This document shows, piece by piece, positions 291 through 25,629 of a stretch of DNA of 25,629 nucleotides. Numbering within the stretch: the first letter of the stretch is position 1; the number at the start of each line of letters is the position of its first letter. The position numbers were made by a program, and so were the translations under genes. Source of the DNA: a virus; IMG/VR virus record IMGVR_UViG_3300042898_005872, positions 1 to 25,629 of that record, one strand, 5' to 3'. Below the pieces are notes generated by a model. It did no database searches, was not told where the DNA came from, and saw nothing but the letters and a program-made list of their open reading frames with translations.

Positions 291-347
291 ATAATAAATG
301 GGGGTGTCATTGGTTTCGATTAGCTTTTGACGCATCAAGAAGCAACC

Positions 348-387
348 CGTGCTGATACTCGGTGGAGCACGATAATACAACTGAGTA
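348..387 (+). other. tmRNA pseudoknot PK1
   Basis: This is an H-type pseudoknot. Stem 1 is CGTGCT (348-353) with AGCACG (366-371). Stem 2 is TACTC (356-360) with GAGTA (383-387). All pairs are Watson-Crick. Its position immediately upstream of the resume codon is that of PK1, which in known tmRNAs helps set the resume frame. Confidence 0.8.
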
Positions 388-397
388 ATTTATAAAT

Positions 398-472
398 GGC
401 AAAAACACACATATTTTCAATCATTATCCAATGGTTGAAGTATCTCAGAACCAATACGCAATAGCGGCTTGA
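398..472 (+). other. tmRNA tag-peptide reading frame, 24 residues plus TGA
   Basis: The resume codon is GGC at 398, with an A at position -4 (394) as in characterised tmRNAs. The frame starts GKNTHIFNHY, continues through PMVEV, and ends NQYAIAA followed by TGA at 470-472. The terminal YAIAA corresponds to the YALAA-type degron of bacterial tags, with Ile replacing Leu. At 24 residues it is longer than the 8-15 residues usual for tags. Later resume codons in the same frame are possible, but the PK1 spacing favours 398. Confidence 0.75.
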
Positions 473-476
473 TTCC

Positions 477-529
477 GAGTGATATAATTTGCGGTCGTTC
501 TCATTATATCACTCGTCGCTTATAACGAC
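477..529 (+). other. tmRNA helix 5 / pseudoknot PK2
   Basis: A perfect 12-bp stem pairs GAGTGATATAAT (477-488) with ATTATATCACTC (503-514). Loop bases GTCGTT (494-499) can pair with AACGAC (524-529), making a second H-type pseudoknot just after the tag stop codon. This is where tmRNAs carry H5 and PK2. A further GCTTTC/GAAAGC pairing at about 543-575 may be part of PK3. Confidence 0.7.
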
Positions 530-719
530 ATATATCATAAGAAGCTTTCGTTTTATGAAGAACTTTAGAAAGCACAGTTGCTATCGGCTGCTCTTTGCCT
601 AAATAGATAACTTATTATAAAAGAGATATGGTTGTAGTGTTCTAATAACTTGGAAGTTAAGACAGGGGTTCGATTCCCCTCACCTCCACAAATTTATTTT
701 TTATTATCATTTTATTTAT

Positions 720-754: not shown

Positions 755-1558
755 ATGAATAATTGGAAAACAAAAAGCTCATATGATATTCTTGAAGAAT
801 TTTCAAAGATATTATCTCATTCATCTTTTGATAAACACGCTCCTACATGGAATCCAAGACTTAATAAAATAACCAGAATTCTTGTTGAGTCTAATATTCC
901 ATATGAAACTATCCATTATAATGTTCCATTTTATAAAAGGGATTTTACAAATATTTATATTTCTTTTTCAAAGGATTTAAATATTCCAGGGCTTATGTTT
1001 TTAGCACATCATGATATTGTAAATGAAGATTCTGAAAATTGTCAGGATAATACTGCATCTATAAGTCATTTGTTAAAATTGGCATTAGACTTAAATGATA
1101 ATCCTCCTCCTATACCTATACATATTGCAATAGTTGATTCAGAAGAACATGTAAATCCATATTGTTGTGGAAGTCAAGTTCTTTCTGAAGATATTAAATG
1201 TGGTAAGTTTGGAGATATATCCGCTTGTATAAACTTGGAACTAACAGGACTAGGAAAACATATATGGGTAAGTTCGTTTGAAAAATTTGAGGATATATGT
1301 GATCCTTATATACAATTACTTAATGCAAAAAAAGTCCAAACTCCATATAATGATGCCTTTGTTCTTTCTTTACATGGAATACCTGCAATGTGTATAGGAA
1401 TTCTTGATGATTATGATATAGATGTTGCCTTAAATGGCTATGGTTATCCAAATATTTGGAATTTGTGTCATAGAATGGAAGATACATTTGATAAAATATC
1501 TAAAGAAGATATGGATGAATTTTATTTTAAACTTTTGAGCATTTGCAATTATGAATGA
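755..1558 (+). CDS. M28-family zinc aminopeptidase-like protein
   Basis: It resembles M28 metallopeptidases, which use two zinc ions to remove N-terminal residues from peptides. All expected metal and catalytic positions can be read in order: AHHD (H85, D87), DNTAS (D98), SEE (E130, E131), NLELTG (E162) and CHRMEDTFDKI (H239). The family's GS pair follows the EE motif (CCGS, 137-140), and the YNDAF..LHGIPA stretch (198-211) matches the usual region before the last His. At 267 residues it is a minimal catalytic domain, without signal peptide or extra domains, so it should act in the cytoplasm. An AAAGG site precedes the ATG. It sits 66 bases after the tmRNA and overlaps the next gene by 8 bases. 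Substrate is unknown; an amidohydrolase-like activity on another amide substrate is also possible. Confidence 0.72.
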   Translation: MNNWKTKSSYDILEEFSKILSHSSFDKHAPTWNPRLNKITRILVESNIPYETIHYNVPFYKRDFTNIYISFSKDLNIPGLMFLAHHDIVNEDSENCQDNTASISHLLKLALDLNDNPPPIPIHIAIVDSEEHVNPYCCGSQVLSEDIKCGKFGDISACINLELTGLGKHIWVSSFEKFEDICDPYIQLLNAKKVQTPYNDAFVLSLHGIPAMCIGILDDYDIDVALNGYGYPNIWNLCHRMEDTFDKISKEDMDEFYFKLLSICNYE

Positions 1559-4880: not shown

Positions 4881-7800
4881 ATGATGTATGCAGCCGATCA
4901 GTTTTTACGTAAGTTTTTAGGTATCTCTAGTATAGTGGATCCTGGAATAGTAAATAATTATAATCATGAAGACCCTACATATCCTATATTTCATATTAAG
5001 TTTGCTTTTAACCCACCAGAAGCAAAGCACCCAGATTATGTTACAAATAGATTACTAAGTGACCTCAAAGATGAAACGTCTCAGGTAGCTCCAGAATCAG
5101 CTATAAAATTTCTGTATAATGTAGGGGAGCCTGAAAGAGCAATTATGCTAAGAAAATTCAACTTAGCTTTAAAGTCAATTAGTGAACAAACCCCATGGTA
5201 TTTTCAAGGTATAAATGGAATAGAAGGTTTATTTAAACATGCATATCCATCTGAAGGTAGAGGTGAAGCAGGACTTACGGATGCAGTTATTGACATATCT
5301 ACATTGGATAGTATTGACTTTAGGATTACGGCTTTAAAGGATCTTTATAGAAAAGCAGCATATGATAGGAAGTATAGAAGATGGGTTTTACCTGTCAATA
5401 TGAGAAGATTTCGAATGACTATTATGGTCGGAGATGCAAGACAATTAGCTATAACAGAAGATAATTACTCTATAAATGGTAAACAAGCGTTACAAGCATT
5501 AAGAGATATAGATATTTTTAATGCTAGTAATATAGGTGGAAAACTTCTAGGTAAAGTTCGTGATGGATCTTTATCTTTTGTTAAAAGACTTCAATGGTGG
5601 GATAATCATTTTTCATGTTTAGTATTTGACTGTCAAGATTGTGAATTTGATATGAATAGTTTTAGTGGAATAAATAGCTTAAGTCACCCAAGACTTAAAG
5701 ATACTACTCTTGCTCAGAGTCTAAAAATAAAAATAGGAAGAGTTATAGAAAGTAATACATATAGTCTTTTGGAATATTCATTAAGTGATAATTTAATTGA
5801 AAATTTTTTAAAGTCTGAAAATAAATCAGATGTAATAAAACTTTCTCAAACTTTAAATGCGGCTTTTAAACCTAAGGTTCCTTATTGGAATAATTATCAA
5901 AATCTAGAAAGAGATAAAGGGGATAATAAAAGAATTATTACTGAAGATGGTGGATTTGGAAGTGCTATATCTCAAGGTGCAAATGCTGCTGCTGCTGCTT
6001 TAGGCATAGATGGTATCACGCAAGGTACAAATCTTGGTGGTGGAGGTGGAATTTTAGGTTCTTTAGGCTCTATTGTTGATTTTGCTGGAGATACTGCATC
6101 AGAAATAGCTCAAGAAGCTTTAGGTTTGGCAACTGAACAAATCACAAAGAATGTATTTGGTAATGATCTTTATCGTTCAGCAGCAGGTATAGGGCTTGGT
6201 ATTTTAAATGGAGATTTAAATCAAGTAGCTCAAAACTTTGTAAATCCTGCTATCGCAGGTGCTTTAGGTATTAACATAGAATCTTCAGGAAGACCAATAC
6301 AACCAAATCTCAGGGATGGTATTCCAACTAAATTAGAATTAGTAGCACCAAATGTACAAAAGTCTTTAAGCGACATTCAAGCAAATCTTTCAGGTCAAGG
6401 TGCAGATCCAAGATTTCAATCAATTGGAAGACCTGGGGGAAGTTTATTTAATAATCCTAATCCAACTGAAAAACTTTTTGATCAAAAAAATATTGATCTA
6501 CAAGCTTCAAGAGTTGAAAAAGAAATGCCTCAAAATATTGAGTTCCAAACTGTTAGAAAAGAAACTAAAATTAATCCTAAAAAAGAAGTTTTAACTGGAG
6601 CAACTAAAAAAACTACATTTGATGAATCTTTAATAAACTTGGAAGGAGCAGGTAAAAAATTAGATTTAACTCCAAGTAGTGCAAATCTAAGTGGTGCTCA
6701 ACCTCTAAAAGATTTAACCCCTAATAATGCAGATTTAGTAGGTGCTCAACCTCTTAAAGACTTAGTACCTGATAATGCAGATTTAGTAGGTGCTCAACCT
6801 CTAAAAGACTTGATTCCTGATAATGCAGATTTAGTAGGTGCTCAACCTCTTAAAGACTTGATTCCTAATAATGCAGATTTAGTAGGTGCAGAACCTCTTA
6901 AAGACTTGATTCCTGATAATGCAGATTTAGTAGGTGCACAACCTCTTAAAGACTTAGTACCTAATAATGCAGATTTAGTAGGTGCAGAACCTCTTAAAGA
7001 GTTAGTACCTGTAAATGCAAATTTAATTGGGGCTGAATCTTTAAAAGACTTAGTACCTACAAGTGCAGAACTAACAGGAGCTGAAGCACTAAAGAAAATT
7101 GATCCTGCAAAAGTTATATTAGAAGGTCAAGATCCATTATTGAGTTTTGATCAAAAATCTATAACTTTAACAGGTACAACTCCTCTTACAAAATTCGCTT
7201 CTGCAAATGAAACTTTAGTGGGTGCAAAAGTGCTCACAGATTTAGCTCAAAGTAAAATTAATTTAGAGGGTACAGAGCCTTTAAATAGTTTAAGTTCTAC
7301 AAATGTAGATTTAGCTGGAAAAACACCATTGAGTAAATTTGAAGAATCTAAAATAGATCTTACAGAATCAAAAGTATTAAGGGATCTTCCTAATTTAAAA
7401 GAAGAATTGATTTCTCCCACTAAGCAAACAAGTTTTAATGAAACTACAGCTGATTTAGATGGAATAAAACCTCAAACTAAGTTTGCTGAAGACAATGTAA
7501 ATTTAGAAGGAAGTGCAATTAAGTCAAGTTCAATTAAAAATGCTAATTTAATAGGAACACTACCAATTTCTAAATTGAATGAAAGTAATGTTGAATTAAC
7601 TGGAAATAATAAAAATACTGTAAAAGAACTTGGAGTTGCAGAACTAAATGGAAAAACACCAGCGGATAAACTTTCTGAGAGTAATGTTGGAAATATGGAA
7701 TATAATGAAAGCTTAACATCTACTTCATTAGGAAAAGAAACGTTACTTGGCAAAGAGCCTGTCACAGCTTTTTCTGAAAATAATATAGGTAATATGAAAA

Positions 7801-8714
7801 ATGAAGTTCCGAATACTTTATCTTCATTAGGAACAGAAACATTGCTTGGAACAAAACCTCTTACGAATTTATCTGAAACTAATGTTAATCTTGTAGGAGC
7901 TACAGTACAAAATAAAATTTCTGAAAAAATTGAATTAAACAGTGCAAGTATAACTACAAAAATGGATAAAAATGTTCGTTTAGAAGGTACAGCTCCATTA
8001 AATCATATGAATGATAATGTAGAATTGAAAGGTGCTATAAATATAAATACAACATTTCCATCTACAAATATTAATCTAGAAGGTAAAGAGGGTGCTACTT
8101 TACTACCTAATCAAAATGTAGAATTAGAAGGTAAGCAGCCTCAGAGTAATACCATAAGTAATGCTTTTGAAGGTCAACGTACTCTAGGTATAAATAAAAA
8201 TAAAAAAACTTCCCAAGGAAATGTTGAACTAGAAATTTCGAAACCTCTACAGGTTCTACCAACAAAAAATGTTGATACAGAAACAAGAAGTTCTTCATAT
8301 ACAATAGGTCAAAATGTATTTCAGGAAAATAAAGGTATAGGGATAAAAAGTAATAATCAAACACTGCCACAAAGTCGTATAGAGTTTGAAACATCTTCTG
8401 TTATGGGAAATACAACTTCTGAAAATGTAGGTTTTGAAACTCCCTTTACTAGAGAGAATACAACTTCTGAAAATGTAGGTTTTAAAACTCCTTTTACTAA
8501 AGAGAATACAACTTCTGAAAATGTAGGTTTAGAAGCACCTTCTATTCAAGAAAATACAAATTATAAAAATGTAGGTTTAGAAGCACCTTCTGTTCAAGAG
8601 AATACAGGTTACAAAAATGTACAATTAGGAGTACCTTCAGTTAATACACCAATAAGAGAAGTTTCTGGAGAACTGTCTGTTGTAAAAAATCCTAAAGATT
8701 CAAACTCACAATAA
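4881..8714 (+). CDS. Giant 16-residue-repeat tail/baseplate protein
   Basis: 1277 residues in four parts. (1) A globular N-terminal domain of about 345 residues, including RRWVLPVNMRRFRMTIMV and WWDNHFSCLVFDCQDCEFDM, a strand-rich pattern reminiscent of tail-tube or tube-cap proteins. (2) A Gly/Ala-rich stretch, about 355-475. (3) From about 600 to 1100, many units of about 16 residues with the form NADLVGAQPLKDLIPD, near-identical at 600-743 and diverged after. (4) Five further 16-residue units (NTTSENVGFETPFTRE type) at 1177-1256. It lies between neck/DUF3008 genes and the central spike, so a tail or baseplate role is likely. A tape measure is an alternative, but its repeats are not coiled-coil. 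The start is ATGATG; either codon could serve. Function of the repeats is unknown. Confidence 0.6.
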   Translation: MMYAADQFLRKFLGISSIVDPGIVNNYNHEDPTYPIFHIKFAFNPPEAKHPDYVTNRLLSDLKDETSQVAPESAIKFLYNVGEPERAIMLRKFNLALKSISEQTPWYFQGINGIEGLFKHAYPSEGRGEAGLTDAVIDISTLDSIDFRITALKDLYRKAAYDRKYRRWVLPVNMRRFRMTIMVGDARQLAITEDNYSINGKQALQALRDIDIFNASNIGGKLLGKVRDGSLSFVKRLQWWDNHFSCLVFDCQDCEFDMNSFSGINSLSHPRLKDTTLAQSLKIKIGRVIESNTYSLLEYSLSDNLIENFLKSENKSDVIKLSQTLNAAFKPKVPYWNNYQNLERDKGDNKRIITEDGGFGSAISQGANAAAAALGIDGITQGTNLGGGGGILGSLGSIVDFAGDTASEIAQEALGLATEQITKNVFGNDLYRSAAGIGLGILNGDLNQVAQNFVNPAIAGALGINIESSGRPIQPNLRDGIPTKLELVAPNVQKSLSDIQANLSGQGADPRFQSIGRPGGSLFNNPNPTEKLFDQKNIDLQASRVEKEMPQNIEFQTVRKETKINPKKEVLTGATKKTTFDESLINLEGAGKKLDLTPSSANLSGAQPLKDLTPNNADLVGAQPLKDLVPDNADLVGAQPLKDLIPDNADLVGAQPLKDLIPNNADLVGAEPLKDLIPDNADLVGAQPLKDLVPNNADLVGAEPLKELVPVNANLIGAESLKDLVPTSAELTGAEALKKIDPAKVILEGQDPLLSFDQKSITLTGTTPLTKFASANETLVGAKVLTDLAQSKINLEGTEPLNSLSSTNVDLAGKTPLSKFEESKIDLTESKVLRDLPNLKEELISPTKQTSFNETTADLDGIKPQTKFAEDNVNLEGSAIKSSSIKNANLIGTLPISKLNESNVELTGNNKNTVKELGVAELNGKTPADKLSESNVGNMEYNESLTSTSLGKETLLGKEPVTAFSENNIGNMKNEVPNTLSSLGTETLLGTKPLTNLSETNVNLVGATVQNKISEKIELNSASITTKMDKNVRLEGTAPLNHMNDNVELKGAININTTFPSTNINLEGKEGATLLPNQNVELEGKQPQSNTISNAFEGQRTLGINKNKKTSQGNVELEISKPLQVLPTKNVDTETRSSSYTIGQNVFQENKGIGIKSNNQTLPQSRIEFETSSVMGNTTSENVGFETPFTRENTTSENVGFKTPFTKENTTSENVGLEAPSIQENTNYKNVGLEAPSVQENTGYKNVQLGVPSVNTPIREVSGELSVVKNPKDSNSQ
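6678..7109 (+). repeat. Nine tandem 48-bp units inside the repeat gene
   Basis: Units begin at 6678, 6726, 6774, 6822, 6870, 6918, 6966, 7014 and 7062, exactly 48 bases apart and in frame. The units starting between 6726 and 6966 are nearly identical at DNA level; the outer units have diverged. Each encodes one 16-residue repeat such as NADLVGAQPLKDLVPD. Confidence 0.92.
8409..8648 (+). repeat. Five tandem 48-bp units, second family
   Basis: In-frame units start at 8409, 8457, 8505, 8553 and 8601. The first three share the sequence for NTTSENVGF/L; the last two have diverged (NTNYKNVGL, NTGYKNVQL). The period is the same as in the upstream array. Confidence 0.88.
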
Positions 8715-9499: not shown

Positions 9500-12400
9500 A
9501 TGGCTAAATCACTACTTCAAATAACGCCTTATGCCTTGGTAGAATTAGATTACGACACTACAGTAATATCTACCAATACGCAGTCTTTTTTGTTTTTCAA
9601 TTCTTCATATACAAATGAAAGACAATTACTGAATGTTACAAAAGGAAATAATCCAACATCTAATATTTTAGATAGATCTGCTGTACGTTTGACTGATTCT
9701 AGAACTTGGGCACATTTAGATCAAGATAGAGCTATCCCTTATAATAGTTATGATTCTGCAAATCTTTCTCAAAGTTTATTAAGTGATTATACTAGTACAC
9801 AATGGCCAGTTGAATATGAAACTTTAAAATTACATTTACTATCAGGATATAATCTAGAAGATTTAGATGGTTTACTTCTTAGTGTTGAATACCCTGAAGT
9901 TTCTGGAAAGAATTGTACAGTTGCTCAAATAGCTTATTTAAAAGGCGATGAGTTTATTAAATTCAATGCTAGACCAATTGTAATTTCAGGACGAAGTTAT
10001 GATAGATATATTGAAGTGTTAATACCCTCTCTTTTTAGTCTTAACGATGAATTTTATGCTAACCCTACATCTGGAGCTTTAGCTTATTGGTTAAGTTCTA
10101 ATAACAAAGGTTTTTTGAGAAGCGGTTTAATTTCTATTACATTAAGAGAAATTACTACATCATCAGATAATGGAACAGTTCTTTCATTAACGGCAGGTAA
10201 TGTTACAAATATAACATATAAACAACAGGATGCATATAGTTTATTAAGTGCTGTTATCATTGAAAATGATGAAGAAGATTGTTTTGAATATTACCCTTCA
10301 TGGCAAGGTGGATTTGTAGAAGATTTAGTTTCTAGTTTAAATTCAGTTGGTGGAGATTATTATGTTTTTCATGAACTATATATTTATGAGCAATTAGGGT
10401 TTAGTCAAGTACAAAGCGATTATTTTGTTTCTATACAAGAAGGTAATTTTAATGAGCCTAAAAAATTTAGGCCTATTTTAAAAAATGCAGATTCCGCATA
10501 TTCCTTTAGTATAGATTATGTAATGAGACTTACAGACAAAGATACTGGAAATCAAATTGTAAGGACAGCCTCTATCACTTCATTTGAGCCTAAAAGACAT
10601 GGAAGAAAAATAGAAAAAGTTAATTTAGAGGGTTCAGTAAGATCCTTTAAAATTTACAACAAAATTATAGAAGAAACTAAACTTCAAGTTAATAGAAAAG
10701 TAGTAGATAAAAGAGTAGAAAAATTATATACTCCTACATTTTTTGATTTTAATGAAGTAGCTGTAAATACATCTAATGTAATCTTAAAAACTGATGGAAC
10801 ATTTACTACTGAATCTGTTTGGAATTGGGATGTTATTTTTGGACAAGGCGAAGCTATTATGCTTATACATCCTTATGAGAACTATGTTAAATTTAAAATG
10901 CATAGATATTTAGAAAATAATGTTACGACTTCTTTAGATTTACGTTATGATGTTGATTTATTTTTAGTAATAGAATACGCTGGAAAAAGAGTAAGGTTTT
11001 CTAAATTAGAAGGATTTTATTCGACAAATTTAGCTGAAGGTGAAATAGTATTTAAGATACCTGCGAAAGATTCTTCTGCTATTTATTCTAATGAAGGTGG
11101 CATATTTTATATCACATCAAAAGTTCCATCCTTTATAAAAGTTAAAGTTATGGACAATTTTGTTGGAGGAATTGCTAATAAAGAAATTAATATTATTTCT
11201 AAAGAATTTTATTCTAAGGGAGACACAGATTTATTTGAATTGATATATGATGGGGTTACTTATTTTGTTCCTAAAAATATGCTTCAAGTTATTCAAGTTA
11301 TTCCTACAGGATCAGGAGTTAGTGAAACTACTTTATATACAGGTAAATGGAGAAGAATGCAAGATGCAGATACTGTAAAAGATGATATTGAAAAAATAAG
11401 AAGAAATGAACTTGAAAGGGTTTTAAATAATATTAGAACTTCTCAACTATCTTTGAATACTCGTCAATCTGAATTAAGTCAAAAATCATCTGAACTTGCA
11501 GCGTTAGAAGCTAAATTAAATGCGCAATCCTCCTCACAAAATGCACAAGCAGATTTACTTAATTCTCTACAAAGAGATGTTGCAAGTAAAGATAAAATAA
11601 ATAATCAAAGAGAATTAGATTTAAGAGAACAAGCTAGGAAGGCAGCAGAAAAAGAAAATCAAAATATAGCTGCATTTCAAGACCAATTAAATAAGATTTT
11701 AAAATCTATTGAGGACCTTGAAAATGTAAGTGGTGAAGGTGCTGGTGGAGGTGAAGGTAACCAAGGTGGAGGTAATCAAGGTGGAGGTAACCAAGGTGGT
11801 GAAGGTGGAGGAAACCAAGGTGGAGGTAACCAAGGTGGTGAAGGTGGAGGAAACCAAGGTGGAGGTAACCAAGGTGAGGGTTTGGGTAATCAAGGTGGAG
11901 GTACACAAGGATACCAAGGTGGAGATAATCCAGGTGGGGGAGGGATAGTCAAAACAGTGGTAACGCAAAATGATGTAATTAATCCTACGCTTGGATTAGA
12001 TAGATTTAATCCAAATGCAAATATTACTGGTGTAGCTAAAACTATAAATTATGTTGATTTTCTAGGAAGATCTGGCAGTGATTTGGGTGTTTTACCTTCA
12101 GTTGGATTTTCACCTCTAACTATAGATGCAGGTTTAAATTTTTCTAACAAAGGACCTTTAGTTGGTGGTGGATTTGGAACAGGTGTCCCAATAGTTAATA
12201 ATAATTCAGGTGTTAATGCTATTTTAGGTACATCTGGTAGCTCAGTAGCTAACAAAAGATCATTTATTTCTGATTCTTTAGGAACAAGAAATGGTGCTGG
12301 ATCTAATAGTGGTGTAACAGTTCTACCTCCTGCTGGAAATACTGAAAAAATTGTAAAAGGAAAAGTTAAAACTTGGAGTGATATTTTAGGTGATACGCAT

Positions 12401-12946
12401 ACTGCTTGGCAACAATATTTTTCTTTATTTTCGAAATCTACAACTAATATTCGTACTTATGAATCGTGGGATTTCTTTAATTATGATAGAAGGTTAGCTA
12501 AATCTGAAATAGATAAATATAACTATAGAGCTTTTGATTATATCCGTGCGAGAAACAAAGGAGAGATAATTGAATTACAAGTAGAATCTATTTATTATTT
12601 ATCAGTAGGTGATTTATTAGTAAGTAAAGATGAACATGTGAAAATTGAGATTACTTATTTATCATCACCAGGTAGAGTTCGTGGTATTTATATTGATACT
12701 AACGTTGCATATAGTTTGGGAAGAATTGGAGTTGTTTTAGGTAGAAATGTTAATTTTCCAGGAGCTCTTACGAAATATGGCAAATATACAAAAGGATGGG
12801 TATTAAAGACTATACTTTATGAAGAAGAAAACATTGATTGGACTATTATCAAAAAGAATAGTGGTGGTAATAGAGGTGGAGGTAATGGAGATGGTGGTGG
12901 TGGAGGTGGAGGTGGAGAAGGTACTGGTGTTAAACAACCTCTTTAA
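9500..12946 (+). CDS. Large structural protein with coiled coil and Gly-rich linkers
   Basis: 1148 residues. About 1-620 is strand-rich and probably folded into several beta domains. About 627-740 is a long coiled coil (Glu/Gln/Lys/Leu heptads, for example SQKSSELAALEAKLNAQ). About 744-815 is a GGGNQGG-type linker. Then comes a globular C-terminal domain with an aromatic segment (YESWDFFNYDRR), and a second Gly-rich tail (about 1121-1143). It begins one base after the spike gene and is co-transcribed with it. Context points to a baseplate or tail component. A large C-terminal domain on a flexible linker would suit a fibre or adhesin mount. I do not recognise a named family. Confidence 0.55.
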   Translation: MAKSLLQITPYALVELDYDTTVISTNTQSFLFFNSSYTNERQLLNVTKGNNPTSNILDRSAVRLTDSRTWAHLDQDRAIPYNSYDSANLSQSLLSDYTSTQWPVEYETLKLHLLSGYNLEDLDGLLLSVEYPEVSGKNCTVAQIAYLKGDEFIKFNARPIVISGRSYDRYIEVLIPSLFSLNDEFYANPTSGALAYWLSSNNKGFLRSGLISITLREITTSSDNGTVLSLTAGNVTNITYKQQDAYSLLSAVIIENDEEDCFEYYPSWQGGFVEDLVSSLNSVGGDYYVFHELYIYEQLGFSQVQSDYFVSIQEGNFNEPKKFRPILKNADSAYSFSIDYVMRLTDKDTGNQIVRTASITSFEPKRHGRKIEKVNLEGSVRSFKIYNKIIEETKLQVNRKVVDKRVEKLYTPTFFDFNEVAVNTSNVILKTDGTFTTESVWNWDVIFGQGEAIMLIHPYENYVKFKMHRYLENNVTTSLDLRYDVDLFLVIEYAGKRVRFSKLEGFYSTNLAEGEIVFKIPAKDSSAIYSNEGGIFYITSKVPSFIKVKVMDNFVGGIANKEINIISKEFYSKGDTDLFELIYDGVTYFVPKNMLQVIQVIPTGSGVSETTLYTGKWRRMQDADTVKDDIEKIRRNELERVLNNIRTSQLSLNTRQSELSQKSSELAALEAKLNAQSSSQNAQADLLNSLQRDVASKDKINNQRELDLREQARKAAEKENQNIAAFQDQLNKILKSIEDLENVSGEGAGGGEGNQGGGNQGGGNQGGEGGGNQGGGNQGGEGGGNQGGGNQGEGLGNQGGGTQGYQGGDNPGGGGIVKTVVTQNDVINPTLGLDRFNPNANITGVAKTINYVDFLGRSGSDLGVLPSVGFSPLTIDAGLNFSNKGPLVGGGFGTGVPIVNNNSGVNAILGTSGSSVANKRSFISDSLGTRNGAGSNSGVTVLPPAGNTEKIVKGKVKTWSDILGDTHTAWQQYFSLFSKSTTNIRTYESWDFFNYDRRLAKSEIDKYNYRAFDYIRARNKGEIIELQVESIYYLSVGDLLVSKDEHVKIEITYLSSPGRVRGIYIDTNVAYSLGRIGVVLGRNVNFPGALTKYGKYTKGWVLKTILYEEENIDWTIIKKNSGGNRGGGNGDGGGGGGGGEGTGVKQPL
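11740..11945 (+). repeat. Gly-rich coding repeat (GGTGGAGGTAACCAA type)
   Basis: Short repeats encode GGGNQ/GGEGGGNQ. A 39-base unit beginning GGTGGTGAAGG is duplicated exactly at 11795 and 11834. Shorter GGTGGAGGTAA(C/T)CAA copies flank it. Opposite-strand open frames here are by-products of the repeat. Confidence 0.85.
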
Positions 12947-13557: not shown

Positions 13558-14271
13558 ATGTATACTTTAAATTTTATTCAAAAGTGTTTATTTTTTGATA
13601 TTGAAACTACGTCTCGTTTTAAAACCTTTGAGGAATTCAGAATTAATGAATATGAAATTTCTAAGATCTGGACAGACAAATGTTTAGAACATGCTAAATA
13701 TAAAGATAATCCAGAAAAAAGCTATGAAGAATCTGCATCTTTATATCCTGAATATGGAAAAGTTGTTTGTATTTCTTATGGTTATTTTTGTACAACAGAT
13801 AACAAGTGGAAAGTAGAATCTTTAAGTGATAATAATTCGAATGAATGTAACTTGTTAAAGTCTTTTGCTAAAATAATAAATACAAGATTTTATCATCATA
13901 TTTTAGCAGGATTCAACATTAAAAAATTCGATGTACCTTTTTTGTACAGAAGAATGTTAGTTCATAAAATTTTGCCCCCCACACAGTTTGATACATGGGA
14001 TAAAAAACCTTGGGATATTATTTCATTAGACTTGTATAGAGTTTGGAGTGAACTTTATACAATTAACAGTATGTGTAGTTTTGATTTGATTTGTCATTTA
14101 ATGGGTGTTGAATCTCCAAAAAATGGGAACGTAAGAGGATCTAATGTTGGTGAATTTTATTTTAATGGTAATATAGATGATATCGTTAAATATTGTAGAA
14201 AAGATGTACAAGCTTCAATAAAATTGGCTATGAATTTAGCTCATGAGAAGCTTGATGAAATTGTTAACTGA
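13558..14271 (+). CDS. Stand-alone 3'-5' exonuclease, PolB proofreading type
   Basis: A DEDDy exonuclease of the RNase H fold, related to the proofreading domain of family B polymerases. Exo I is LFFDIETTS (D14, E16), Exo II is AGFNIKKFDVPFL (N120, D125) and Exo III is YCRKDV (Y212, D216). All four acidic ligands and the Tyr are present, so it should be active. At 237 residues it is just the exonuclease, with no polymerase motifs. The replication operon on the other strand encodes a polymerase fragment without this domain, so this protein probably supplies proofreading in trans. A repair nuclease is the alternative. It converges with the next gene with an 8-base overlap of the 3' ends. Confidence 0.82.
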   Translation: MYTLNFIQKCLFFDIETTSRFKTFEEFRINEYEISKIWTDKCLEHAKYKDNPEKSYEESASLYPEYGKVVCISYGYFCTTDNKWKVESLSDNNSNECNLLKSFAKIINTRFYHHILAGFNIKKFDVPFLYRRMLVHKILPPTQFDTWDKKPWDIISLDLYRVWSELYTINSMCSFDLICHLMGVESPKNGNVRGSNVGEFYFNGNIDDIVKYCRKDVQASIKLAMNLAHEKLDEIVN

Positions 14272-19978: not shown

Positions 19979-21265
19979 TTACTCTTTATCCTCATCACTT
20001 CCTGATGGTAAATCCATTCCTTCAAGATCCTCATCTAAAACTGTAAACTCATCATCATTTAAAGATTCTGGTAATAAAAATAGTTTACCCATTTTTTCAT
20101 TGAGAGCATTTAACACTTCAGGAGTAAATACTTCTTTTGTTAGTAGTTCTTTCGCTGAACGTATATTTTTACCTAAATGTCTAACCGCATATGTTTTTGC
20201 TGCATCATCAGCTACAAATTCTATTTCATTAGTTTCTATTTCATCAAACTTTGGTTTACCTCTATAGATTACTTGAGTCCCACTTTCATCCAATACAGGT
20301 TTTTTTTCTATCTTTTTAGTAAGTGTACCTCTTTGTATACCACAGGTTTCCCAATCTACAAAATTCTCAAGGTAAATATATCTATTCATACCTGAAAAAA
20401 AGTTAATATGAAATTTAATAGGTATAGGTCTTGTAAAACGTGACTTCTCTAATTTAGAAGTTACGATGATACCACTTTGACTCATATTAGCGTCTTTAGA
20501 CTGTTTTGTTTCTTCTTTTAATTTAGCCTTTGTCAAAATAATATTTACTGATGGATTATATTGTACTCCACTTCCTCCTGCTATTTTATCAGTTGGTACA
20601 TAAGCGGTTGTATCTGTATATGTGTGGTTAACAAATAAAATTGGAACATTTAACTTTCCAGAGGGAACTGTAATGGTTCTAAAAAGAGATTTGATTTCTG
20701 AAGGTCTAGTCATATCCCTTTTATGATCTCCAGTTTTAGAATCATTATCTTCTTTGGCTGTCTTTAAATTACCTATAGAATCTATAATAATCAAAAATTT
20801 GCCTGGATCTTTTTTTTCTTTAATAGCATCTTTCATTGCTTCAAAAATTTCTACAATTTGATGCTTAACATTATGTATTACATCTTCTGGAATTAAAGTA
20901 AATTCTTTTGTATTTACTCCAAATTTAGAAACATGATTTTCATCTATAGCAAATTCAGTATCAAAATATAAAATATGGTAACCAATTTTTTGAGCTTCTC
21001 TTGCCATATTTAGAGCTAAATAAGTTTTTCCTGTTCCTGATGGTCCGCTGATACCTATAATCCTATTTGAAGGTATACCTCTAAAAAGGGATCCTGAAAT
21101 TTGACAATTAAAAGCATAATTTCCTGTTGGTATCCATTCTTTTATTTCTCCAAATGCAGATTCACAAATTAAAGCTGCATCTGGATTTACTTTTTTTAGT
21201 CTAGATAATATTGACCCTTTTGCAGATTTTGCTAAATCTTGATTCTTATCGTTTTGCTTTGCCAT
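19979..21265 (-). CDS. uvsX: UvsX/RecA-like recombinase
   Basis: It forms filaments on ssDNA and drives strand exchange for recombination-dependent replication and repair. Walker A GPSGTGKT (about 74-81), FDTE with the catalytic Glu (about 104), Walker B LIIIDS (about 158-163) and the VNHTYTDT switch strand (about 213-220) fit RecA/UvsX. A very acidic C-terminal tail (DLEGMDLPSGSDEDKE and before) is typical of UvsX and RecA. The start is set at ATG 21265 instead of the upstream TTG at 21277, which overlaps the polymerase stop. The ATG follows an A-rich leader and leaves an 8-base gap. Length of 428 is slightly above T4 UvsX. Confidence 0.9.
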   Translation of the reverse strand: MAKQNDKNQDLAKSAKGSILSRLKKVNPDAALICESAFGEIKEWIPTGNYAFNCQISGSLFRGIPSNRIIGISGPSGTGKTYLALNMAREAQKIGYHILYFDTEFAIDENHVSKFGVNTKEFTLIPEDVIHNVKHQIVEIFEAMKDAIKEKKDPGKFLIIIDSIGNLKTAKEDNDSKTGDHKRDMTRPSEIKSLFRTITVPSGKLNVPILFVNHTYTDTTAYVPTDKIAGGSGVQYNPSVNIILTKAKLKEETKQSKDANMSQSGIIVTSKLEKSRFTRPIPIKFHINFFSGMNRYIYLENFVDWETCGIQRGTLTKKIEKKPVLDESGTQVIYRGKPKFDEIETNEIEFVADDAAKTYAVRHLGKNIRSAKELLTKEVFTPEVLNALNEKMGKLFLLPESLNDDEFTVLDEDLEGMDLPSGSDEDKE

Positions 21266-21273
21266 GTTTTTCT

Positions 21274-22521
21274 TCAAAATAGTGAATTATTTACAATTAA
21301 TGTTTCAGGTATAGACTTAATATTCATAGCTTCAAGAAGTCTATTTGTAGGCTCTATTACTTTTTTTGAGAATTGTTTATCATAATCAATCAAAGGTGCA
21401 AATTCTTTAGGATGATTTAAAGGTAAATAACAAAAAACATCGTCTTTTTTGAAAAGAGTTTTTGTGTAGTATACTTTTACTTTATCACTTGATTTAATTC
21501 TATGATATTTCATATTGTATTTTGAACGAGATAATAAATGATTATAAATAGCAGAACCTCTAATATGCATAGGACAAGCTTTTTTTACTGCAACTTCAGT
21601 CCCATCATTTATTACCCATTTACCATAATCTGATATTCTTTTTGTTTCACATATTTCATCTAAATCTTTCATTTCCATTTCTTTACGCCACTTTTTAAGA
21701 ATATTTAAAATCACATCAAATTTAATTGTCCCTTCTTTTTTCTGTGAGTTTAAAATTAGCATTAACATTTCTTTTAACTTTATTCTACACCAAGATGGGT
21801 GAGATGGTTTAACTGCTTCTAATCCAGTAACAGAAAGAACGCCTTCGGATTTTTCTGAATATTTTATACCTTCTACAAAAACTTCTTCATTTTTAACTTT
21901 AATAGATGTCGCTTTCCATGCTAACTCTATAGCATAATTTTTCTTAGCTATAAATATTCCAATACGTATTAATTTTTCAAATTCAAAATCCATAAGATTA
22001 ATAGTATTTCTTTTTTTTGCATAAAGATCATATGCATGTGTAATATAGTTATGTAGTCTATACTTATAAATATTTATTATAAAATCTACAGGATCATCTT
22101 CTTTATAGTTTGCTGATTTTAAAACTCTATCAAATCTAAAATAAGCAGAATCAGTATCACCTTGTATCAATAAAGATTCTTCGCCTAAATGTTCTATTGG
22201 ATTTGTTAAATTTAACAATTTATGCAATTTATTATCTTTGTGCCAATGATTTGTAAAATAATTATCAAATATTTTTTTTGCATGTAAAGAAATATCGACG
22301 CTTTGTTGAGTAATTGCCTCTGCTACATTTACATTAAAACATATAAAATGTGTATTTCCAAAAGCACCATAAACAGAGTTAATAAAGATTTTAATACCTT
22401 GCTCTTCGTTAAAAAGATCATGTCTTAGTTTATTTAATCTTTCTATTTCAGCCTTTATTTCTTCATATGTAGCAGTTTCAAGATCAATGCTGACATATTT
22501 TATATTATTATTTTGAATCAT
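21274..22521 (-). CDS. DNA polymerase, family B, C-terminal piece only (T4 gp43-like)
   Basis: It holds the second half of a T4-type polymerase. A fingers-like helix is followed by motif B KIFINSVYGAFGN (about 44-56), motif C QGDTDS (120-125), KKNYA (193-197, the KxY position) and thumb CPMHIRGS (316-323). It ends in NNSLF, like the clamp-binding tail of gp43. Exonuclease motifs and motif A (DxxSLYPS) are absent, and the frame closes 24 bases above the ATG, so this is not an annotation error within the window. The start is placed at ATG 22521 (TTG at 22536 possible), overlapping the clamp gene by 14 bases. Activity requires a partner carrying motif A, expected outside this window. A decaying pseudogene is unlikely given its place in the operon. 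Confidence 0.88.
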   Translation of the reverse strand: MIQNNNIKYVSIDLETATYEEIKAEIERLNKLRHDLFNEEQGIKIFINSVYGAFGNTHFICFNVNVAEAITQQSVDISLHAKKIFDNYFTNHWHKDNKLHKLLNLTNPIEHLGEESLLIQGDTDSAYFRFDRVLKSANYKEDDPVDFIINIYKYRLHNYITHAYDLYAKKRNTINLMDFEFEKLIRIGIFIAKKNYAIELAWKATSIKVKNEEVFVEGIKYSEKSEGVLSVTGLEAVKPSHPSWCRIKLKEMLMLILNSQKKEGTIKFDVILNILKKWRKEMEMKDLDEICETKRISDYGKWVINDGTEVAVKKACPMHIRGSAIYNHLLSRSKYNMKYHRIKSSDKVKVYYTKTLFKKDDVFCYLPLNHPKEFAPLIDYDKQFSKKVIEPTNRLLEAMNIKSIPETLIVNNSLF

Positions 22522-23296
22522 TTCTTCCAACGACAAGGATAGTTTTTGAATCCAAAGACATAAAAATTAATTTTGTATGACCAACTTTTACATTATATGA
22601 CTCATGATCTAGCATATTTAAATAGTTTTTAGGAAAACTAGCAGAAATATCTGCATTTCCTTTATTCTTTTGTGATGCTAATTTATACTCAAAGTTTTTA
22701 TTTCCGAAAGTTACTGAATTTTCATGATATTTAGCATAAATATCATTATTAATTTTATCAATATTTGAAAATTTCTTGATTTTTGTTAAATCTTCTAACG
22801 ATAAGTCAAATTCAAATATGGGTTCAGGAATATTAGATATCTCATTGAAAAACTTTTCATTTGTAATAATTCCGTAAATTGATAAAGAACCATTGTCAAA
22901 AGAAAATTGCAAATCTTTATTATTATTTAATGTTGTTTTCATTGCTACATATTCTTCTTCTATATCCAATCCTGCAAGTTTTAAGTATGTGATTTTCATA
23001 GAAACATGATCAGAAGACTCTAAAAATTTAAGTGCTTGTTGATAATGTTTAACATTAATAATACCAACCTTTAGATTATCAGGAACATATTCTTCATTTA
23101 CTTGTAAAATTTCTTCTAAATTTAAAGCAGAATATTTAATAGCACTTCTATCTGGGGTATATGTTCTAGAATAAAACTCATCAGGAGTAATTTCTAAAAG
23201 GAGATTTTCATCAAATTGTGAAAATCTATCAAGAAATGTATGGAATTTATTAACATTAATATTAATATAATTAAGAGTTTCATTTTTTTCTTTCAT
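22508..23296 (-). CDS. Sliding clamp (gp45-like)
   Basis: A processivity clamp that rings DNA and tethers the polymerase. The 262-residue protein has the tandem strand-helix layout of PCNA/gp45: an N-terminal FDENLLLEITPDEF region, a central IIN..HYQQALKFLE helix, DLQFSFDNGSLSIYG strands, a second FDLSLEDLTKIKKFS repeat and the final YNVKVGHTKLIFMSLD / TILVVGRND strands. It is first in the replication operon and overlaps the polymerase gene. The start is set at ATG 23296; an in-frame TTG at 23308 is less likely. No clamp-loader genes (44/62) are in the window. Sequence identity is low, so the call leans on pattern and context. Confidence 0.72.
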   Translation of the reverse strand: MKEKNETLNYININVNKFHTFLDRFSQFDENLLLEITPDEFYSRTYTPDRSAIKYSALNLEEILQVNEEYVPDNLKVGIINVKHYQQALKFLESSDHVSMKITYLKLAGLDIEEEYVAMKTTLNNNKDLQFSFDNGSLSIYGIITNEKFFNEISNIPEPIFEFDLSLEDLTKIKKFSNIDKINNDIYAKYHENSVTFGNKNFEYKLASQKNKGNADISASFPKNYLNMLDHESYNVKVGHTKLIFMSLDSKTILVVGRNDSK

Positions 23297-23435: not shown

Positions 23436-25629
23436 ATGAATTCTGCTGATAATAGTTTACACGATGTCGTTCAAGAATTAATGCGAACTCACGCTAATTC
23501 TTTAGAAATTTTATCTAAATTTTCAGAAGCTTTTACTTCTACAGCCGAAAGCGTTTCAGTTAATATTGTAAACTCTGATGGTATATCTACATCATATCAA
23601 GTCCCTTCATTAGGATATTTAAGATCTGAATTAAAGAGATTAGAGGAAAATGTAAAGGGACTATCTGGAGTTGATTCTGGAAGTGCTACTATACGTTTAG
23701 AAGATGGTACATATAAACGTATCATGGCTTCGGGAAATAATAAAGAACCAAATAGAATAGGTACATTAAATGTTCCATCTAGATTTACAAGAAGAAATAA
23801 TTGGTTTTTTGATAATTTTATTAATCCGATGCTTGTTGTTACATTTGATGTTACTAGTTATGTAAATTCAGATGTTAGAAGTGTATGGTATAGACGAGTT
23901 ATCGTAAATACTGATACTGATGATAAGAGGGCAATTTTCGATCAAAATATTAAAGGAAGAAATGATATAGAATATGAAACCTTGATGCTATTTCTAAATG
24001 GAAGAGGAATAAACCATTTTGTTGATGAAGATGAGTATAGATTTCCACCTTCTATTAGTCAGTATACAGGTACTTTTGATGTAATTTCTATTTTAAATTC
24101 TGATACTACAGGTTCTGGTAATTCCAAAGTTTATAGATTTAATAAATTAACATATACCAATAACTTAAACCAAACAGTAGATACTGAAACTTTAAAGATT
24201 GGAGATATTTTATCTACAAAAGGAGCAGCAAGATACAGAGTAGATGAAGTAAATAAAACAGATAATAGTATAAGACTTACTCTTACAAGTGGATTTGAAT
24301 TAATTCCTGTAGGTATTGATGTATTATACATTATGTCTGAAGTTTTAACATTAAGACAAGTTGAAGTTTCATTAGGTCATGATGAAAGACAAGTTATTTT
24401 CTTTAGACCTGTTAATAATACAACATCTATAGCTTCGACTAAATGGTCACCTGGCGTAAGTGTTTATTCTAATGACTTAAGGATAAGAACTTCAGATACT
24501 GATATGTCATTAGATGAATACTACAAAAAATACTGTATTGATTTTGGTGCTCAACTATTAGACGTAGCTAAGAATAAGCCAGTTCCTACTACTCAGGGAT
24601 TAAAACCTGATGCACCTCTTTTAAAATCAGAATACTTTAAAGTTGTAATTGCAAATGAGCATAAACTACAATCTCAAGATACAGAAGTGTTAAGACGAAA
24701 GTTTGCTGAAAAAAATAGACTTCAATCTGAGATACAACAATTGGAAAGTTCTATTGCAAAGACAAAAGAAGAATTTCAAACTACTAACTTTAGAACACCT
24801 TCTGATCAAAGAATAATTTCTACTAAACTTAGTAATCTTATTGATCAGAAGAATAATTTATCTACTCTTTATTCTACTATAGTTAGAGAGATGGGTTCTA
24901 TGAATGTTTCAGAGACATCATTAGAAAACCCAAAATATAGAATCCGAGGATTTTTTCCTATACCTAGTCCAAAAACAAATGTAAAAAGTGGACAACAAAA
25001 TATCATACAATTTATAATACAATATAGATATTTACGATTAGATGGTACTGCAAGTGGTCCAAAAACATTTGAATTTAATGATTCTTCAGGTAATAACTCA
25101 AAAGGGTATTATGCAGAATGGACTGAAGTTATAACTCCTGTTAGAAAACAAGTGTATGATTCTGCTAATCAGAAATACGTGTGGGCAAATGAAGATGTTA
25201 ATGATCCTGATATCGTTAATATTAATCAAGTAGATATACCTATTACTCCTAATGAAAAAGTGGAAATTCGTATAGCATCTGTAAGTGAAGCAGGATTTCC
25301 ATATAACCCTTTAAAATCAGATTATTCTACTAGTGTGACAGTAGATTTTCCTACAGAACTTATTAGAACAAATGAAACAAATCTTTTACAACAAGCCCAA
25401 TTAGAACTGAATAAAGTTGATGTTCTTGCTACACTTAATGCACAAGGTCTAGAAGTTATATTAGCAAGTGCGTTTACACAAGGAGATCAGGTATTTGTTT
25501 CGAAGGGCGATGATGTCGCTTCAGGATTTGTTACAGATTCTGGAACTGCTCTTTCAGTATATGCTAAATTTAAAGAAATGGAGAATAGATTATCAGGAGT
25601 TATGGAAATTATTAATACTGCTAAACCTA
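23436..25629 (+). CDS. Large virion (probably baseplate/tail) protein, 3' end outside window
   Basis: An uninterrupted frame from ATG 23436 to the window end, 731 codons, incomplete. The start MNSADNSLHDVVQELMRTH is helical. Then come SVNIVNSDG..TSYQVPSLGYLRSELKRLEENVKGL (65-76 region helical) and FTRRNNWFFDNFINPMLVV, a pattern seen in large structural proteins of contractile phages. A coiled coil lies at about 415-450 (LQSEIQQLESSIAKTKEEF). After it come fibronectin-like strands (FIIQYRYLRLDG, EKVEIRIASVSEAG) with YNP..SDYS. It is divergent from the replication operon and preceded by a late-promoter-like element. I cannot assign a T4 gene number; a baseplate wedge component is the best guess. 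Confidence 0.6.
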   Translation, partial: MNSADNSLHDVVQELMRTHANSLEILSKFSEAFTSTAESVSVNIVNSDGISTSYQVPSLGYLRSELKRLEENVKGLSGVDSGSATIRLEDGTYKRIMASGNNKEPNRIGTLNVPSRFTRRNNWFFDNFINPMLVVTFDVTSYVNSDVRSVWYRRVIVNTDTDDKRAIFDQNIKGRNDIEYETLMLFLNGRGINHFVDEDEYRFPPSISQYTGTFDVISILNSDTTGSGNSKVYRFNKLTYTNNLNQTVDTETLKIGDILSTKGAARYRVDEVNKTDNSIRLTLTSGFELIPVGIDVLYIMSEVLTLRQVEVSLGHDERQVIFFRPVNNTTSIASTKWSPGVSVYSNDLRIRTSDTDMSLDEYYKKYCIDFGAQLLDVAKNKPVPTTQGLKPDAPLLKSEYFKVVIANEHKLQSQDTEVLRRKFAEKNRLQSEIQQLESSIAKTKEEFQTTNFRTPSDQRIISTKLSNLIDQKNNLSTLYSTIVREMGSMNVSETSLENPKYRIRGFFPIPSPKTNVKSGQQNIIQFIIQYRYLRLDGTASGPKTFEFNDSSGNNSKGYYAEWTEVITPVRKQVYDSANQKYVWANEDVNDPDIVNINQVDIPITPNEKVEIRIASVSEAGFPYNPLKSDYSTSVTVDFPTELIRTNETNLLQQAQLELNKVDVLATLNAQGLEVILASAFTQGDQVFVSKGDDVASGFVTDSGTALSVYAKFKEMENRLSGVMEIINTAKP

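What the first reader, a model, noticed from the sequence alone, without database searches (positions are those of the whole stretch)
21274..22521. T4-like DNA polymerase split between motif A and motif B
The gene begins in the fingers, about 40 residues before motif B, and lacks exonuclease and motif A. A palm split between its catalytic Asp residues means two proteins must join to make one active site. Splits of gene 43 are known in some T4-like Aeromonas phages, and I recall that Rhodothermus phage RM378 has separate exonuclease and polymerase genes.
Basis: partly seen in the sequence, partly recalled or inferred. Interest (0 to 1): 0.78.

Follow-up and report, generated by a model that had tools for sequence, protein, structure and literature searches.

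The report
DNA polymerase split across its fingers
This phage gene encodes only the back half of its DNA-copying enzyme, and in dozens of related giant phages the front half is a separate gene thousands of bases away, so two proteins almost certainly join to form one active site, an arrangement known from two Aeromonas phages and here found to run through a whole lineage of giant phages.

Summary
Confirmed. Window 22521-21274 (-) encodes a 415-aa C-terminal half of a T4-type family B DNA polymerase. It starts at the tip of the fingers, 47 residues before NSxYG, and holds motif B, motif C and the thumb. It has no exonuclease and no motif A. Five contigs from different metagenomes share this start, with dN/dS about 0.09-0.15, so it is a live gene. 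The missing N-half is not in the 25.6 kb window or in the four sister contigs (up to 79.6 kb).

Relatives show what it is. In 43 phage records (Lak and 460-735 kb huge phages among them) polB is two genes: an N-half with exonuclease and motif A, and a C-half like this one. They break at the same point, equivalent to RB69 residues 505-514, and lie 4.5-40 kb apart, or 100-280 kb in several megaphages. The models meet there: the N-half ends in one long fingers helix and the C-half begins with the other.

The break coincides with the split of Aeromonas phage 44RR gp43A/gp43B; a published split gp43 is active. New here: an ancestral, lineage-wide, dispersed split without an intein or intron at the break. 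This clade's own N-half remains unlocated.

The parts
21274..22521 (-). C-terminal half of a split T4-type family B DNA polymerase (415 aa): second fingers helix, motif B (K44, NSVYG 48-52), motif C (D122, D124), thumb, C-terminus NSLF
   Evidence: ORF; PHROG_262 489-840/856 E=6e-57 and PHROG_1918 full length; Pfam PF00136; AF2 model pLDDT 86, RB69 gp43 Z up to 23.5; invariant catalytic residues over 45 homologues
22508..23296 (-). Upstream gene (262 aa) overlapping the polymerase start by 14 bases; candidate sliding clamp. It precedes the C-half in the window, G002, G004 and G005, and precedes the fused polB in G006
   Evidence: clamp identity is only a guess: no Pfam, PHROG or PDB match, one weak collinear hhalign match to 44RR gp45 (P=0.015)
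19979..21265 (-). UvsX/RecA-like recombinase directly downstream of the polymerase half
   Evidence: PF00154 E=8e-16, PHROG_97 E=7e-59; same order in L003, L005, L020
18370..19689 (-). DnaB-like replicative helicase of the same gene run
   Evidence: PF03796 E=5e-16, PHROG_19 E=5e-64
13558..14271 (+). Separate 237-aa DnaQ-like 3'-5' exonuclease (DNA_pol_B_exo2). Not the missing N-half: no motif A or palm, and the N-halves of relatives carry their own exonuclease domain
   Evidence: PF10108 E=1e-17, PHROG_25228 E=2e-33; RB69-equivalent span 98-357 only

Best explanation
The gene encodes the C-terminal subunit of a two-subunit family B replicative DNA polymerase. A separately encoded N-terminal subunit (about 460-515 aa in relatives) brings the N-terminal domain, the 3'-5' exonuclease, the first palm segment with motif A Asp (RB69 D411) and the first fingers helix with Arg/Lys equivalent to R482/K486. 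This C-subunit brings the second fingers helix with the motif B Lys/Asn (K560/N564), the motif C Asp pair (D621/D623) and the thumb. The two long antiparallel fingers helices pack against each other and the palm sheet is completed only when both proteins meet, giving one metal-binding site built from two chains. No protein splicing joins them at this break. Shown: the gene anatomy, the break position, selection on the gene, and the presence of both halves in 43 relatives. Inferred: that this phage carries an N-half elsewhere in its genome, and that the halves form an active complex.
For: Complementary halves in 43 records, all breaking at the same point. In 42 genomes with both halves, the N-half ends 83-94 residues after motif A Asp and the C-half starts 29-52 residues before motif B. 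N and C genetic distances correlate strongly across these 42 genomes (Mantel r=0.96, 0 of 2000 permutations). Nine N-only contigs lack a C-half: seven are under 80 kb, and in the two longer ones the N-half lies 3.5 or 21.6 kb from the downstream contig end. Catalytic residues are invariant in 45 C-halves (K44, N48, D122, D124) and 33 N-halves (D99, E101, D198, D292, D379, R440, K444). dN/dS is 0.09-0.15. The N-half model ends in helix 428-462 and maps to RB69 4-505; the C-half model begins with helix 19-54 and maps to RB69 from about 514-522. The stretch before and at motif A is low-confidence in the isolated N-half (pLDDT under 50 at 352-383). One relative, G006, has the two halves as a single 877-aa protein. 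Precedent: split gp43A/gp43B co-purify and are active (review PMC2988022, citing Petrov 2010).
Against: The N-half of this phage or its four closest sisters was not found: the records are fragments (25.6-79.6 kb), and N-half scans returned none from the sister contigs' samples. No complex was modelled (no multimer tool). Assembly and activity are untested for this lineage.
Confidence: 0.88

Rival explanations
1. Remnant: the genome has another full-length polymerase and this C-half is a decaying or inactive leftover.
For: The rest of the genome is unseen; no N-half within 25.6 kb, nor within up to 79.6 kb of the sister contigs.
Against: Strong purifying selection (dN/dS 0.09-0.15, similar to the neighbouring candidate clamp gene), intact catalytic residues, and the same arrangement in every long relative, where no full-length polB appears beside the halves.
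Confidence: 0.04
2. The halves are joined after translation by a split intein or by RNA trans-splicing at the fingers, giving one chain.
For: Split inteins occur in this very protein in relatives, but at motif C (Lak-A2, LR756500, G036). Split inteins in PolB of Aeromonas phages are known (PMC11923092).
Against: The window C-half starts directly with fingers sequence and matches only DNA_pol_B in Pfam. The N-halves end in the fingers helix without intein sequence. Rfam finds no intron in the window, and the genes lie on opposite strands in some genomes.
Confidence: 0.04
3. The C-half has taken on a non-catalytic role (for example a clamp-binding or structural factor) and a different polymerase replicates the genome.
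For: The N-half is not found here; the gene overlaps a candidate clamp gene and ends in a conserved LF tail.
Against: All polymerase catalytic residues and the replication-operon context are kept.
Confidence: 0.03

Closest known systems
Split gene 43 (43A/43B) of Aeromonas phages 44RR2.8t and 25
   Same: Two cistrons; break at the fingers tip (RB69 512/514), the same point as here; no intein at the break. The review PMC2988022 says the split products co-purify and have polymerase activity.
   Different: There the two cistrons are adjacent (50 nt apart in 44RR; a homing endonuclease between them in phage 25). Here the halves are 4.5-280 kb apart in relatives and the split is ancestral to a broad clade. 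44RR groups with RB69, outside this clade, so the two splits are independent.
Split PolB of Methanothermobacter (Kelman 1999) and Nanoarchaeum equitans, as discussed in PMC4104785
   Same: Family B polymerase encoded by two genes; in N. equitans the genes are non-adjacent.
   Different: Archaeal PolB3; thought to derive from intein excision, or joined by a split intein. No intein is seen at the break here.
Rhodothermus phage RM378 polymerase and exonuclease
   Same: Two genes cover what T4 gp43 does in one.
   Different: RM378 splits between exonuclease and polymerase; motifs A, B and C stay in one 522-aa chain.
Lak megaphages and 460-735 kb uncultured huge phages (MK250019, MK250021, MK250029, LR756500-LR756504, LR745206)
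   Same: polB split at the same point, with N-half and C-half as separate genes.
   Different: Lak, LR756500 and G036 have a further break in the C-half at motif C with split-intein halves; the window C-half is uninterrupted. The papers on these phages that I could search do not report the split PolB (PMC6784885, PMC8346664, PMC7162821, PMC7824862).
Pseudomonas phage MIJ3 split polB with intein; Jug phage polB fragments (PMC6892783, PMC12363816)
   Same: polB in pieces in huge phages.
   Different: Those breaks are described as split by an intein or by endonuclease sequences between neighbouring fragments.

Membership tests
T4-type family B DNA polymerase (gp43) | Motif B (KxxxNSxYG) and motif C (DTDS) with T4-type sequence and fold | tested here: met
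T4-type family B DNA polymerase (gp43) | Exonuclease domain and motif A in the same polypeptide | tested here: not met
   415 aa starting at the fingers tip: it is a subunit, not a whole gp43
44RR-type split gp43A/gp43B | Break at the fingers tip, between motif A and motif B | tested here: met
   RB69 505-514 in relatives versus 512/514 in 44RR
44RR-type split gp43A/gp43B | N-half cistron adjacent to the C-half | tested here: not met
   Upstream gene is unrelated; N-half absent from the window and 4.5-280 kb away in relatives
44RR-type split gp43A/gp43B | Matching N-half in the same genome | tested here: inconclusive
   Window and sisters are fragments; met in 43 relatives
44RR-type split gp43A/gp43B | Subunits co-purify and polymerise DNA | not testable with these tools
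   needs protein biochemistry
RM378-type exonuclease/polymerase separation | Polymerase chain retains motifs A, B and C | tested here: not met
   motif A absent here, present in RM378
Split-intein PolB | Intein splicing half at the break | tested here: not met
   no intein domain in the window protein; relatives carry one only at motif C
Intron or homing-endonuclease split gene | Group I intron or HEG at the break | tested here: not met
   Rfam finds only a tmRNA in the window; neighbours are the candidate clamp and UvsX

The most novel reading that the evidence does not exclude
A whole lineage of giant phages, Lak included, inherited from a common ancestor a replicative polymerase whose active site is divided between two proteins encoded tens to hundreds of kilobases apart. 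Some members then cut the C-half again at motif C with a split intein, so the enzyme comes from three genes: two pieces spliced, then paired non-covalently with the third. One member (G006) appears to have fused the halves again.
Probability: 0.72. Interest if true: 0.68.

Novelty: new variant of a known kind. Interest (0 to 1): 0.6.

Why it matters
Replicative polymerases are usually thought of as single catalytic chains. A stable, old, lineage-wide split through the active site, with the genes unlinked, shows that the fingers hairpin is a natural seam and that a replicase can persist for long periods as an obligate heterodimer. It gives a defined seam for engineered or conditional split polymerases. 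It also explains why polB markers in these phages look truncated, and warns that marker trees or completeness checks may count halves as whole genes. The three-gene form in Lak would join two kinds of protein fragmentation in one enzyme.

Tried and rejected
Searched for this clade's own N-half with N-half alignments (A3, A5, A6) and codon-biased DNA patterns for DFASLYP and GWNFxxFDW. Hundreds of N-halves were found, none from the samples of the sister contigs. One orphan N-half (G080, 110 kb contig, no C-half found there by protein or profile search) is a possible partner but nothing ties it to this clade. The wide C-half scan showed that the window clade is only the window plus four contigs in that collection; next relatives are about 41-43% identical. 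Considered the 237-aa exonuclease at 13558-14271 as the partner and rejected it: no palm or motif A. Considered RM378 as the model and rejected it: different break. Considered an assembly error and rejected it: five contigs from different metagenomes agree. The G004 match starting at profile 439 runs through out-of-frame upstream sequence with ten stops and was treated as alignment overrun. An alignment for folding the fused G006 protein came out badly and was dropped. The candidate clamp could not be confirmed by profile searches.

Full report
OBSERVATION. The window has an ORF of 415 aa at 22521-21274 on the minus strand. It matches DNA polymerase PHROG_262 only from position 489 to 840 of 856 (E=6e-57) and the short family PHROG_1918 end to end. 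Pfam DNA_pol_B begins at model position 133. The best PDB relatives are T4 and RB69 gp43. The protein starts at the fingers: motif B Lys is residue 44, NSVYG 48-52, motif C DTDS 122-125. There is no exonuclease and no motif A. The upstream gene (22511-23296) is unrelated and overlaps the start, so the gene is complete rather than cut off.

IT IS A LIVE GENE. Four IMG/VR contigs from other metagenomes carry the same protein at 73-84% identity, with the same start and neighbours. dN/dS against them is 0.09-0.15, like the neighbouring candidate clamp gene. Lys44, Asn48, Asp122 and Asp124 are invariant in 45 C-halves.

THE OTHER HALF IN RELATIVES. The window and the sister contigs of 26.7, 43.6, 31.1 and 79.6 kb hold no N-half. 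A wider scan gave contigs with 41-43% identical C-halves. In the 173.5 kb contig G005 the same profile finds two pieces: 94-496 at 124671-125864 and 498-839 at 136831-137916. LR756504 (636 kb) and Lak-A2 (541 kb) show the same. A profile of N-halves then found about 500 relatives. Of 49 records searched with PHROG_262, 40 hold both pieces, nine hold only an N-piece, and none shows one match spanning both. Seven of the nine are contigs under 80 kb; in the other two (G017, G051) the N-half lies 3.5 and 21.6 kb from the downstream end. Over 43 records with both halves, 37 have them on one strand, N upstream in 36 of these, with 4.5-39.6 kb between (median 16 kb). Six megaphages have them on opposite strands, 100-280 kb apart in five; LR756501 is 618 kb apart as deposited, about 116 kb if circular.

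THE BREAK. In 42 genomes the N-half ends 83-94 residues after motif A Asp and the C-half starts 29-52 residues before motif B. On RB69 numbering, G005 N ends at 505 and C starts at 514. Aeromonas 44RR gp43A ends at 512 and gp43B starts at 514. RM378 is different: its 522-aa polymerase has all three motifs and only the exonuclease is apart. The predicted N-half of G005 (pLDDT 86) ends in helix 428-462 and aligns with RB69 4-505 (Z 28). The window C-half (pLDDT 86) begins with helix 19-54 and aligns with RB69 from about 514-522 to 893 (Z 21-23.5). These are the two antiparallel helices of the fingers (established for RB69 gp43), cut at the tip. In the isolated N-half the stretch just before and at motif A is predicted with low confidence (352-383), as expected if the palm needs both chains; this last point is inference.

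EVOLUTION. N-half and C-half distances correlate strongly (Mantel r=0.96, n=42, 0 of 2000 permutations), so the halves travel together. 44RR groups with RB69, outside the clade, so the same seam was used at least twice. A single 877-aa polymerase in G006 nests inside the split clade (99% support with G005 in the N tree; 73% with the window group in the C tree), which suggests re-fusion; independent splits are not excluded. Deep nodes of both trees are weak.

MECHANISM. Most likely an obligate heterodimer with one active site built from both chains. In the split Aeromonas gp43 the two products co-purify and are active (PMC2988022, citing Petrov et al. 2010, which I could not read). No intein domain is seen in the window protein and no intron in the window, so joining by splicing at this break is unlikely.

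A SECOND BREAK ELSEWHERE. In G040, G019 and G063 the C-half carries a mini-intein at motif C. In Lak-A2, LR756500 and G036 that intein is itself split between two ORFs; in LR756500 and G036 a large ORF that looks like a homing endonuclease lies between them. Those phages thus encode polB in three genes. The window C-half has no such insert.

NOVELTY. Two-chain family B polymerases are known (44RR/25, Methanothermobacter, N. equitans; PMC2988022, PMC4104785), and polB broken by inteins or endonucleases is known in other huge phages (PMC6892783, PMC12363816). I found no report of the lineage-wide dispersed split: the Lak, huge-phage and jumbo-phage papers searched do not mention it. The moraphage paper lists two polymerase families per genome without comment (PMC12619734), which could be the two halves; not tested. 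Subscription papers are not in the library, so this is not proof of novelty.

LIMITS. This clade's own N-half has not been seen. No complex was modelled. The clamp label for the upstream gene is a guess.

Noticed in passing
window 300-691 (+): A phage-borne tmRNA gene (Rfam RF00023, 125 bits; tag GKNTHIFNHYPMVEVSQNQYAIAA), also present in sister contigs G002, G003 and G004.
   Followed up: partly
L418 467-1285 and 1629-2615 (Lak-A2, code 15); L417 2917-3699 and 287-1237 (LR756500); L420 504-1232 and 2377-3360 (G036): The polymerase C-half is split again at motif C into two ORFs carrying the two halves of an intein (PF14890); in L417 and L420 a large ORF lies between them. With the separate N-half this makes polB a three-gene enzyme.
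   Followed up: partly
L415 454-2142 (G040), L416 224-1960 (G019), L419 468-2525 (G063): C-half with an uninterrupted mini-intein inserted at the DTDS motif.
   Followed up: partly
L030 1303-3936 (G006): Single-chain 877-aa polymerase directly after the candidate clamp gene, nested within the split clade: a likely re-fusion of the halves.
   Followed up: partly
L434 3715-5235 (G080, 110 kb contig): Divergent orphan N-half with motif A DFTSMYPS and no C-half found in the contig; a possible but unproven partner type for this clade.
   Followed up: partly
window 4881-8714 (+): 1277-aa protein with many tandem repeats of the form LKDLIPNNADLVGAQP; no Pfam or PHROG match.
   Followed up: no
window 9500-12946 (+): 1148-aa protein with a glycine-rich GGGNQGG repeat tract near a baseplate-type gene; its relative in G002 (L003) has NQGTG repeats instead.
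   Followed up: no
window 755-1558 (+): Peptidase family M28-like protein next to the tmRNA.
   Followed up: no
window 23436-25628 (+): Large protein running off the window, matching PHROG_29329 of unknown function at E=5e-108.
   Followed up: no
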